From positions 1-64,000 of the forward strand of contig BCHS01000007.1 of NCBI GenBank assembly GCA_039545275.1: a DNA stretch of 64,000 bases. Reading direction: 5' to 3'. Shown in pieces: positions 61,847 through 63,175 of this stretch; within the stretch, counting starts at the first letter, position 1; each line of letters starts with the position of its first letter. Source of the stretch: Pseudomicrostroma phylloplanum (lineage: Eukaryota > Basidiomycota > Exobasidiomycetes > Microstromatales). The notes beneath the pieces are model-generated. The model was not told where the DNA came from, did not search any database, and was given only the letters and a program-made list of their open reading frames with translations. The position numbers and the translations under genes were made by a program.

Positions 61847-63175
61847 ATGTCGGACTCTCTCATCTACCGAGGCTCTCTCGCTGCCCACAAGGGCTGGGTC
61901 ACCTGCATCGCCACCTCGTCTGAGAACCCGGACATGCTCGTCAGTGGTTCTCGTGACAAGACCCTGATCGTCTGGTCGCTCACCCGTGAGGACGGACAGT
62001 ACGGATACCCCAAGAAGATCCTCACTGGTCACTCTCACTTCGTCTCCGACGTCGCCCTCTCCTCTGACGGTCAGTTCGCTCTGTCCTCGTCTTGGGACAA
62101 GACCCTCCGACTGCACGACCTGAACACCGGTACCACCACCCGTCGCTTCGTCGGCCACACCGGTGACGTCCTCTCGGTCTCCTTCTCTGCCGACAACAGG
62201 CAGATTGTCTCTTCTTCTCGTGACCGCACCATCAAGCTGTGGAACACCCTCGGAGAGTGCAAGTTCAACATCACTGAGGACGGCCACTCCGAGTGGGTCA
62301 GCTGTGTCCGATTCAGCCCCAACCCTTCCAACCCCGTCATCGTCTCTGCCGGATGGGACAAGGTCGTTAAGGTGAGTCTTTGCTGGCAAGGAGGAAGAAG
62401 AAGAGACAGAAGAACGCGCAACGTGGGATGTCAGAACAGGGACTGGATGGAGGCTCTTCCAGAAGCGACCAGTCAGATGGCCATCGCGGTCGAGGCAAGG
62501 TGCCTTGGTCGCGCTCGTCTACCTCGCACCATTGCTATGATTAGTGTCATTTTACTCTATATATTTGCTACTATAGAGAGGGCAGCCCCCTCGATGAGAA
62601 CAAATTGGCCACCAAGATCTCTGAGCTTTGGTCGCAGGAGTAGACAGTGTAGGACAGCGCATCGACGGGAGAGGGTGGTCAGGATCTACGCTATATGTTC
62701 TTCTCGCATATGAGCTGAGCCGGTATCTCCCCCTCCTTTCTTCTCACTGCGCTTTGTATAGGTCTGGGAGCTGTCCAAGTGCAAGCTGAAGACCAACCAC
62801 TACGGTCACACTGGCTACATCAACACCGTCACCGTCTCCCCCGATGGATCCCTCTGCGCCTCTGGTGGCAAGGACGGTGTCACCATGCTCTGGGAGCTGT
62901 CCGACGGCAAGCACCTGTACTCTCTCGAGGCCGGTGACACAGTCAACGCCCTGGTCTTCTCGCCCAACCGATACTGGCTGTGCGCTGCCACTGCCTCTTG
63001 CATCAAGATCTTCGACCTGGAGTCCAAGTCGATCGTCGACGAGCTGCGCCCCGAGTTTGTCGGTGTCGGCAAGAACTCGCCCGACCCCGAGTGCCTTTCG
63101 CTCGCCTGGTCTGCCGACGGATCCACCCTGTTCGCTGGATTCAGCGACAACCAGATCAGGATCTGGTCCGTCTAA
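61847..63175 (+). CDS. RACK1: RACK1 / Asc1-Cpc2 WD-repeat ribosomal scaffold protein
   Basis: Two exons, 61847-62371 and 62762-63175, around a 390-nt intron, give 312 residues, the usual length. Seven WD blades are present, with HKGWVTCIATSSENPDML, SGSRDKTLIVW, SSSWDKTLRLHDL, SSSRDRTIKLWNT, SAGWDKVVK-VWELSKCKLK, SGGKDGVTMLWEL and FAGFSDNQIRIWSV. RACK1 sits on the head of the 40S subunit and scaffolds signalling proteins such as kinase C; in smut fungi the orthologue also affects mating and virulence. Codon use is strongly biased, indicating high expression. The unusually long intron carries the U24 snoRNA, so the gene also serves as an RNA host. Confidence 0.97.
62532..62630 (+). ncRNA. snR24: U24 (snR24) C/D-box snoRNA in the RACK1 intron
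   Basis: Elements in order: a C-like box (ATGATTA, 62537-62543; the consensus would be RTGATGA), a first guide ATATTTGCTACT (62561-62572), a hairpin GAGGG-cagcc-CCCTC (62578-62592), a C'-like GATGAG (62593-62598), a second guide CCACCAAGATCT (62609-62620) and box D CTGA (62621-62624). The guides are complementary to two nearby stretches of 25S rRNA, AGTAGCAAATAT and AGATCTTGGTGG, the known U24 targets for 2'-O-methylation. Budding yeast snR24 lies in the intron of ASC1, the RACK1 orthologue, so the host is conserved. The ends are approximate. Box C departs from consensus and box D' is not clear. Confidence 0.93.

What the first reader, a model, noticed from the sequence alone, without database searches (positions are those of the whole stretch)
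62532..62630. U24 snoRNA sits in the RACK1 intron, as in budding yeast
Both rRNA guides (ATATTTGCTACT and CCACCAAGATCT) and box D are read directly, and a small hairpin separates the two halves in the same place as in yeast snR24. Budding yeast snR24 is carried by the intron of ASC1, the RACK1 orthologue, while human U24 is in a ribosomal protein gene. Finding it in the RACK1 intron of what looks like a basidiomycete suggests an old host-guest pairing within fungi. The C box ATGATTA differs from consensus.
Basis: partly seen in the sequence, partly recalled or inferred. Interest (0 to 1): 0.75.

Follow-up and report, generated by a model that had tools for sequence, protein, structure and literature searches.

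The report
U24 snoRNA gene inside RACK1 intron
A fungus of the smut lineage carries the gene for U24, a small RNA that guides chemical marks onto ribosomal RNA, inside an intron of the ribosomal protein gene RACK1, in the same spot as in several mushrooms and other relatives, which points to an old partnership already known from baker's yeast.

Summary
Confirmed. The only intron in the RACK1 coding sequence (62372-62761) holds a dual-guide box C/D snoRNA of the U24/snR24 family (core 62537-62624). Its guides pair perfectly (13 and 12 bp) with adjacent segments of a eukaryotic LSU rRNA, and the box rule puts both targets on known U24 sites. Each exact guide was found once in the 17.1 Mb assembly, both here. 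The Rfam SNORD24 hit is below threshold (26.4 bits, cut-off 41), so the case rests on the guides.

The evolutionary claim gained independent support: seven other RACK1 protein records read into this intron, and each insert fits a translated U24, directly after the same lysine (VVK|VW). Two were met without selecting for U24 (Infundibulicybe, Lentinula); five came from searches seeded with those inserts. They include Agaricomycetes, a Tremellomycete and, less surely, a Pucciniomycotina member; the window is Ustilaginomycotina. The pairing probably dates at least to the basidiomycete ancestor and, with yeast ASC1/snR24, perhaps to Dikarya. It is not universal: Neurospora has U24 split in two, one half intergenic. 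Expression and the fungus's own rRNA were not tested. A new member of a known kind.

The parts
61847..62371 (+). RACK1 exon 1 (175 codons, ends phase 0 after lysine 175)
   Evidence: Open frame, GT donor next to it; RACK1 homology
62372..62761 (+). RACK1 intron, 390 nt, GTGAGT...TATAG; host of U24
   Evidence: Taking it out gives an uninterrupted 312-aa RACK1
62528..62632 (+). U24 box C/D snoRNA with external stem (62528-62535 with 62625-62632: GC/GC, two U-U, ACCA/UGGU)
   Evidence: Read in the sequence; outer pairs present in the predicted fold
62537..62543 (+). Box C, ATGATTA (one base off RUGAUGA)
   Evidence: box consensus recalled
62555..62578 (+). 7-base inverted repeat CTCTATA/TATAGAG that would place the D' guide in a hairpin loop; meaning unproven
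   Evidence: Fold -4.1 kcal/mol; no more stable than shuffles
62561..62572 (+). D' guide ATATTTGCTACT (13 bp with LSU rRNA, to 62573)
62574..62577 (+). Likely box D', TAGA (degenerate)
   Evidence: Fifth base upstream pairs with the A 12 nt after the box D target
62578..62592 (+). Small hairpin GAGGG-CAGCC-CCCTC between the halves
   Evidence: Fold -6.1 kcal/mol
62591..62597 (+). Likely box C', TCGATGA (overlaps the last two hairpin bases)
62609..62620 (+). D guide CCACCAAGATCT (12 bp with LSU rRNA)
62621..62624 (+). Box D, CTGA
   Evidence: fifth base upstream pairs with the C of AGATC
62762..63175 (+). RACK1 exon 2, stop included

Best explanation
The RACK1 intron carries a functional dual-guide U24 (snR24-type) box C/D snoRNA, inherited together with its host intron. 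RNA polymerase II makes the RACK1 pre-mRNA; splicing and lariat debranching free the intron; core proteins on the C/D and C'/D' motifs protect the snoRNA while exonucleases trim the rest; the particle then 2'-O-methylates two LSU rRNA sites 12 nt apart, the C of AGATC (box D) and the A of GTAGC (box D'). Shown by sequence: host gene, intron, boxes, guides, target register, uniqueness in the assembly, and U24-fitting inserts at the same position in seven other RACK1 records. Inferred from the known family: transcription, processing, protein binding and methylation.
For: Both exact guides once in the 17.08 Mb assembly, in order, in this intron. Guides are the two longest antisense runs to LSU rRNA and lie directly side by side on it. 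The five-base rule gives C and A 12 nt apart, the spacing listed for the U24 sites of Arabidopsis, human (U24 and U76) and yeast (PMC3511168 table passage) and Neurospora (PMC2780460). Of 120 RACK1 relatives listed, the two with an insert at this junction both fit U24 codon by codon; five more found with those inserts as seeds also fit, with direct exon-to-intron read-through after VVK or YVK. Yeast carries snR24 in ASC1 (PMC4848094 and PMC2749941 passages).
Against: Rfam score below cut-off. Box C off consensus by one base and D' degenerate. Fold energy ordinary. No RNA or methylation data. Own-genome rRNA not found as a pattern and not searchable by model, so the target is another eukaryote's LSU. 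Neurospora and, by the same paper, S. pombe have U24 split.
Confidence: 0.9

Rival explanations
1. A partly decayed U24: the guides survive, but the changed box C and D' mean that only the box D half works, or neither, with a functional U24 elsewhere.
For: Box C ATGATTA differs from consensus and D' is TAGA where the seven other records fit TTCAGA; an inverted repeat could hide the D' guide.
Against: No second copy of either exact guide in the assembly; both guides are intact over 12 and 13 bases, whereas a decaying guide should drift. The assembly may be incomplete.
Confidence: 0.07
2. U24 entered the RACK1 intron more than once (basidiomycetes and budding yeasts separately), so the shared host is convergence rather than inheritance.
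For: SnoRNAs are known to move within genomes (PMC3511168 title and abstract; PMC8476143 passage); Neurospora has an intergenic U24; the yeast intron phase was not verified here.
Against: Within basidiomycetes the codon boundary and phase are the same in the records that read across the splice site (P0121-P0125) and here. Yeast uses the same host and the same dual guide.
Confidence: 0.25
3. Chance match, not a snoRNA.
For: The covariance model alone is not significant (E 0.19), and at E <= 10 the same family rang in 11 of 14 control genomes, none over the cut-off.
Against: Two perfect guides to directly adjacent rRNA segments, unique in the assembly, in the right box registers, and repeated at the same intron position in other fungi.
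Confidence: 0.005

Closest known systems
Saccharomyces cerevisiae snR24/U24 in the ASC1 (RACK1) intron
   Same: Same host gene, same two guides and the same D' register; primer sequences in PMC4848094 show TTGCTACTTCAGATGG and ATCACCAAGATCTCTGA (passage). Full-length snR24 and its hairpin are recalled.
   Different: Box C and D' differ here; the GC-rich hairpin has another sequence. Yeast intron phase recalled, not verified.
Rfam SNORD24, RF00069
   Same: Guides and box D align.
   Different: 26.4 bits, below the 41-bit cut-off; the alignment starts at model position 17, so box C is outside it.
Neurospora crassa CD50 (U24) and CD51 (U24b)
   Same: The same two rRNA sites, 12 nt apart (PMC2780460 table passage).
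Conserved snoRNA introns of fungal RPL7 (snR59) and NOG2 (snR191)
   Same: Introns of ribosome-related genes kept at a conserved position in intron-poor fungi, with a snoRNA inside (PMC8476143 passages).
   Different: Other hosts and guests; the terms ASC1 and RACK1 did not occur in that paper's main text.

Membership tests
Box C/D snoRNA | Box C RUGAUGA and box D CUGA near the ends, brought together by a terminal stem | tested here: met
   Box D exact; box C one base off; imperfect terminal stem. Consensus recalled.
Box C/D snoRNA | Antisense guide of about 10 or more bases just upstream of box D or D' | tested here: met
   12 and 13 perfect base pairs to an LSU rRNA
Box C/D snoRNA | Stable small RNA bound by the core snoRNP proteins | not testable with these tools
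   No RNA data
U24 / SNORD24 / snR24 | Guides both the LSU C site and the A site 12 nt downstream (dual-guide form) | tested here: met
   Five-base rule gives C and A 12 nt apart; sites listed in PMC3511168
U24 / SNORD24 / snR24 | Rfam RF00069 score at or over the gathering cut-off of 41 bits | tested here: not met
   26.4 bits. The cut-off is a curation threshold; the guides define the family's function. A U24 elsewhere reached 41.1 (L037).
Fungal RACK1-hosted U24 | Lies within an intron of the RACK1/ASC1 orthologue, same strand | tested here: met
Fungal RACK1-hosted U24 | Same intron position as other basidiomycete RACK1 genes with U24 | tested here: met
   VVK|VW; read directly across the donor in P0121-P0125, and inserts at that junction in P0053 and P0058
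Fungal RACK1-hosted U24 | Same intron position and phase as S. cerevisiae ASC1 | not tested
   Recall only: at, or within one base of, the same lysine codon; no yeast genomic DNA was available

The most novel reading that the evidence does not exclude
The U24-RACK1 pairing was fixed in one intron of the common ancestor of Dikarya and has been inherited at the same codon boundary ever since, through massive intron loss. In this fungus it is the only intron left in the coding sequence, so the guest RNA may be the reason the intron is kept; where the pairing broke, as in Neurospora, U24 is found as two single-guide genes.
Probability: 0.6. Interest if true: 0.5.

Novelty: new member of a known kind. 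Interest (0 to 1): 0.4.

Why it matters
SnoRNAs often change hosts, so a host-guest pair kept at one codon boundary in several basidiomycete lineages, and shared with yeast, is a clean case for asking whether a guest RNA protects an intron from loss. It also shows that default Rfam thresholds can miss such a gene, and that some deposited fungal RACK1 proteins carry a stretch of translated snoRNA. It bears on gene-deletion work: removing RACK1 in such fungi also removes U24. [quoted passage not shown]

Tried and rejected
Rejected: chance (see rivals). L001, which scores 26.6 bits and so just above the window copy, is a GATGAT repeat with broken guides; L003 (20.2 bits) gave no hit at E <= 1 and was not looked at further. 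The sR43 and mir-4436 hits and the mir-1249 hit in the same stretch (L002) are far below cut-off.

Led nowhere: a viral-contig scan for a whole U24 pattern gave 0; a RACK1 search there gave 6 pattern matches and no relative. A 17-base D' pattern gave 11 viral stretches, 0 of 11 with CCAAGATC nearby. The single genome-contig match, L037, is a U24 (41.1 bits) on a contig filed as a Verrucomicrobiaceae MAG; no RACK1 match in the 8 kb held (best E 4.6), so it shows a U24 outside RACK1 in an unidentified organism. NCBIfam, a prokaryote library, gave no family for RACK1. Folding energy does not discriminate. The fungal snoRNAome (Canzler et al. 2018, PMC5824354; known to me from a reference list) is not held and may already report this host gene. 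My ten literature searches covered open-licence papers only; among the titles, abstract starts and passages I saw, none reports U24 in a basidiomycete RACK1 intron. Fifteen papers were opened, by term search only (passages, none read whole); several others listed were not opened.

Row handling: one search flagged 6 inserts; 4 (P0036, P0037, P0040, P0089) are pattern artefacts from an earlier WD repeat, and 3 of 120 rows did not fit the pattern (P0067 and P0086 have no insert on reading; P0008 stayed unresolved). P0123 was left out of both trees. One search, on the exon before the intron, also leaves out P0122, P0125 and some reference rows. In one search P0121 and P0124 grouped together on very long branches (100/98) because their intron-derived tails were aligned; I disregard that grouping and use for these two. 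One search failed on a script error and was repeated.

Full report
Observation. Positions 61847-63175 encode RACK1 in two exons separated by one 390-nt intron (62372-62761, GTGAGT to TATAG, phase 0 after lysine 175); the spliced frame gives 312 aa without inner stops. It matches RACK1 chains of solved structures, best Cryptococcus Gib2 4d6v at E 1.2e-173. Its closest listed relatives are smut-lineage proteins (87% to Sporisorium). In a 36-row tree it joins Tilletia (91/86) inside a Ustilaginomycotina group (97/94); in a second tree, on a short exon segment, it fell outside that group on weak branches.

The snoRNA. Inside the intron lie, in order, box C ATGATTA (62537), a 12-base guide ATATTTGCTACT (62561), a degenerate D' TAGA (62574), a small hairpin (62578-62592), C' TCGATGA (62591), a second guide CCACCAAGATCT (62609) and box D CTGA (62621). 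An imperfect stem joins 62528-62535 to 62625-62632. Rfam lists SNORD24 as the best family of the stretch but below its cut-off: 26.4 bits against 41, E 0.19; the window has no family at its cut-off. At E <= 10 the same family rang in 11 of 14 control genomes, none over the cut-off, so the model alone proves little.

Target test. The fungus's own LSU rRNA could not be read: a 25-base target pattern, recalled from memory, had no match with up to 3 mismatches in its assembly, and ten requests for a search with the LSU model did not complete. I used a eukaryotic LSU rRNA fragment on a viral-collection contig, L025 (RF02543, 324.6 bits; sequence). Note that L025 was itself found with that target pattern, so it shows that the target is real eukaryotic rRNA, not that it is this fungus's. 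The snoRNA's two longest antisense runs against the 38-base stretch are the two guides, 13 and 12 bases, on directly adjacent segments; the next longest run is 6. Counting five bases upstream gives the C of AGATC for box D and, with TAGA as D', the A 12 nt later. The same 12-nt spacing is listed for the U24 sites of Arabidopsis, yeast and human (in human the A site belongs to U76) in PMC3511168 (table passage) and for Neurospora in PMC2780460. Two yeast papers name the D' sites C1449 and C1450 (passages); I follow the register.

Uniqueness. In the 17.08 Mb, 20-contig assembly the exact guide pair occurs once, the D guide plus box D is exact once among 58 places with up to 2 mismatches, and the D' guide is exact once among 25 places with up to 1 mismatch. 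The slightly better model hit L001 is a GATGAT repeat.

Other species. Of the best 120 RACK1 relatives listed (of 6743 hits), two carry an insert between VVK and VW: Infundibulicybe gibba P0053 and Lentinula lateritia P0058; 117 have none and one (P0008) was not resolved. Both are Agaricales, and neither was chosen for U24. Each insert can encode 17 of 17 bases of the D' guide with TTCAGA and 16 of 16 of the D guide with CTGA. Two searches seeded with those inserts gave five more RACK1 records (2 hits of 14 candidates; 5 of 32; each count includes the query). Their E-values are weak (0.041 to 6.2), but flanking exons match RACK1 (best 99 to 341 bits). All 7 records fit the 17-base D' stretch and the 14-base ACCAAGATCTCTGA; 5 of 7 fit the 16-base form and two (P0122, P0123) fit 15 of 16; spacing is 44-52 nt against 50 here. 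Among 700,000 shuffles (100,000 per insert) 7 contained both guides anywhere and 0 in the allowed spacing. Limits: the five seeded records are not an independent sample, and compatibility through codons is not observed DNA.

Position. P0121 to P0125 run straight from VVK (YVK in P0122) into V-S or V-R, as a GTNAGN-type donor would read, and P0122 and P0125 return to VWELSK after Q, as CAG would read. That is the codon boundary and phase found here. By exon similarity P0122 falls with Trametes (98/67) and P0125 with Cryptococcus (93/83, inside a Kwoniella-Cryptococcus group 98/95); P0124 falls among Agaricomycetes (97/86) and P0121 with two Pucciniomycotina at only 86/70. P0123 was not placed by tree; its best named short match is Stereum (76% over 55 aa). 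With the window in Ustilaginomycotina, the pairing is likely ancestral to Basidiomycota. The extension to Dikarya rests on yeast ASC1/snR24 (passages) and on my unverified recall that the yeast intron is at or within one base of the same codon.

Circumstantial, from passages: Flammulina RACK1 has introns of 50, 50, 177 and 48 bp, so one is long enough for a snoRNA (PMC7113406); Pleurotus has a SNORD24 in an intron of a gene not named there (PMC5040776); Fusarium U24 is called putatively intronic and falls when the debranching enzyme is deleted (PMC9606315). Against universality: Neurospora has two single-guide RNAs, one intergenic, and S. pombe has U24 and U24b (PMC2780460); Plasmodium has an RNA for the C site in an intron of PF13_0165, a gene I did not identify (PMC2656528); L037 has U24 with no RACK1 match nearby.

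What differs here. Box C has one base off consensus. D' is TAGA where the seven other records fit TTCAGA, the register of yeast CAGA. A 7-base inverted repeat would put the D' guide in a hairpin loop; with the neighbouring hairpin it is no more stable than shuffles (38 of 200 as good), so I leave it as an unproven curiosity.

Verdict. The kind is known from yeast. New are this member, the same position in further basidiomycetes, and the way it was shown.

Noticed in passing
P0053 (Infundibulicybe gibba) and P0058 (Lentinula lateritia), insert after VVK: Deposited RACK1 protein models contain a stretch of translated U24 snoRNA, an annotation error that turned out useful as evidence.
   Followed up: yes
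L037:6158-6224 (minus strand): A U24 at 41.1 bits, over the Rfam cut-off, on a contig filed as a Verrucomicrobiaceae MAG; probably eukaryotic contamination, host region not RACK1 within the 8 kb held.
   Followed up: partly
L025:4115-4503: An IMG/VR contig carries a piece of eukaryotic LSU rRNA with the U24 target.
   Followed up: no
62555-62578: Perfect 7-base inverted repeat around the D' guide, directly next to the GC hairpin; could mask or display the guide.
   Followed up: partly
61545-61622: Upstream of RACK1 an 8-base inverted repeat ACCAAAAG/CTTTTGGT encloses ATGAT- and CTGA-like motifs; no Rfam hit and folding no better than shuffles (z about -1.1).
   Followed up: partly
G000, whole assembly: The recalled 25-base LSU target pattern has no match with up to 3 mismatches in the 17.08 Mb assembly, so rDNA may be missing or withheld; the LSU-model search did not complete.
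   Followed up: partly
PMC2656528 passage: In Plasmodium another snoRNA, PFS2, is reported in an intron of a guanine nucleotide binding protein gene, with a RACK1/Asc1 paper cited beside it: possibly RACK1 hosting a different guest.
   Followed up: no
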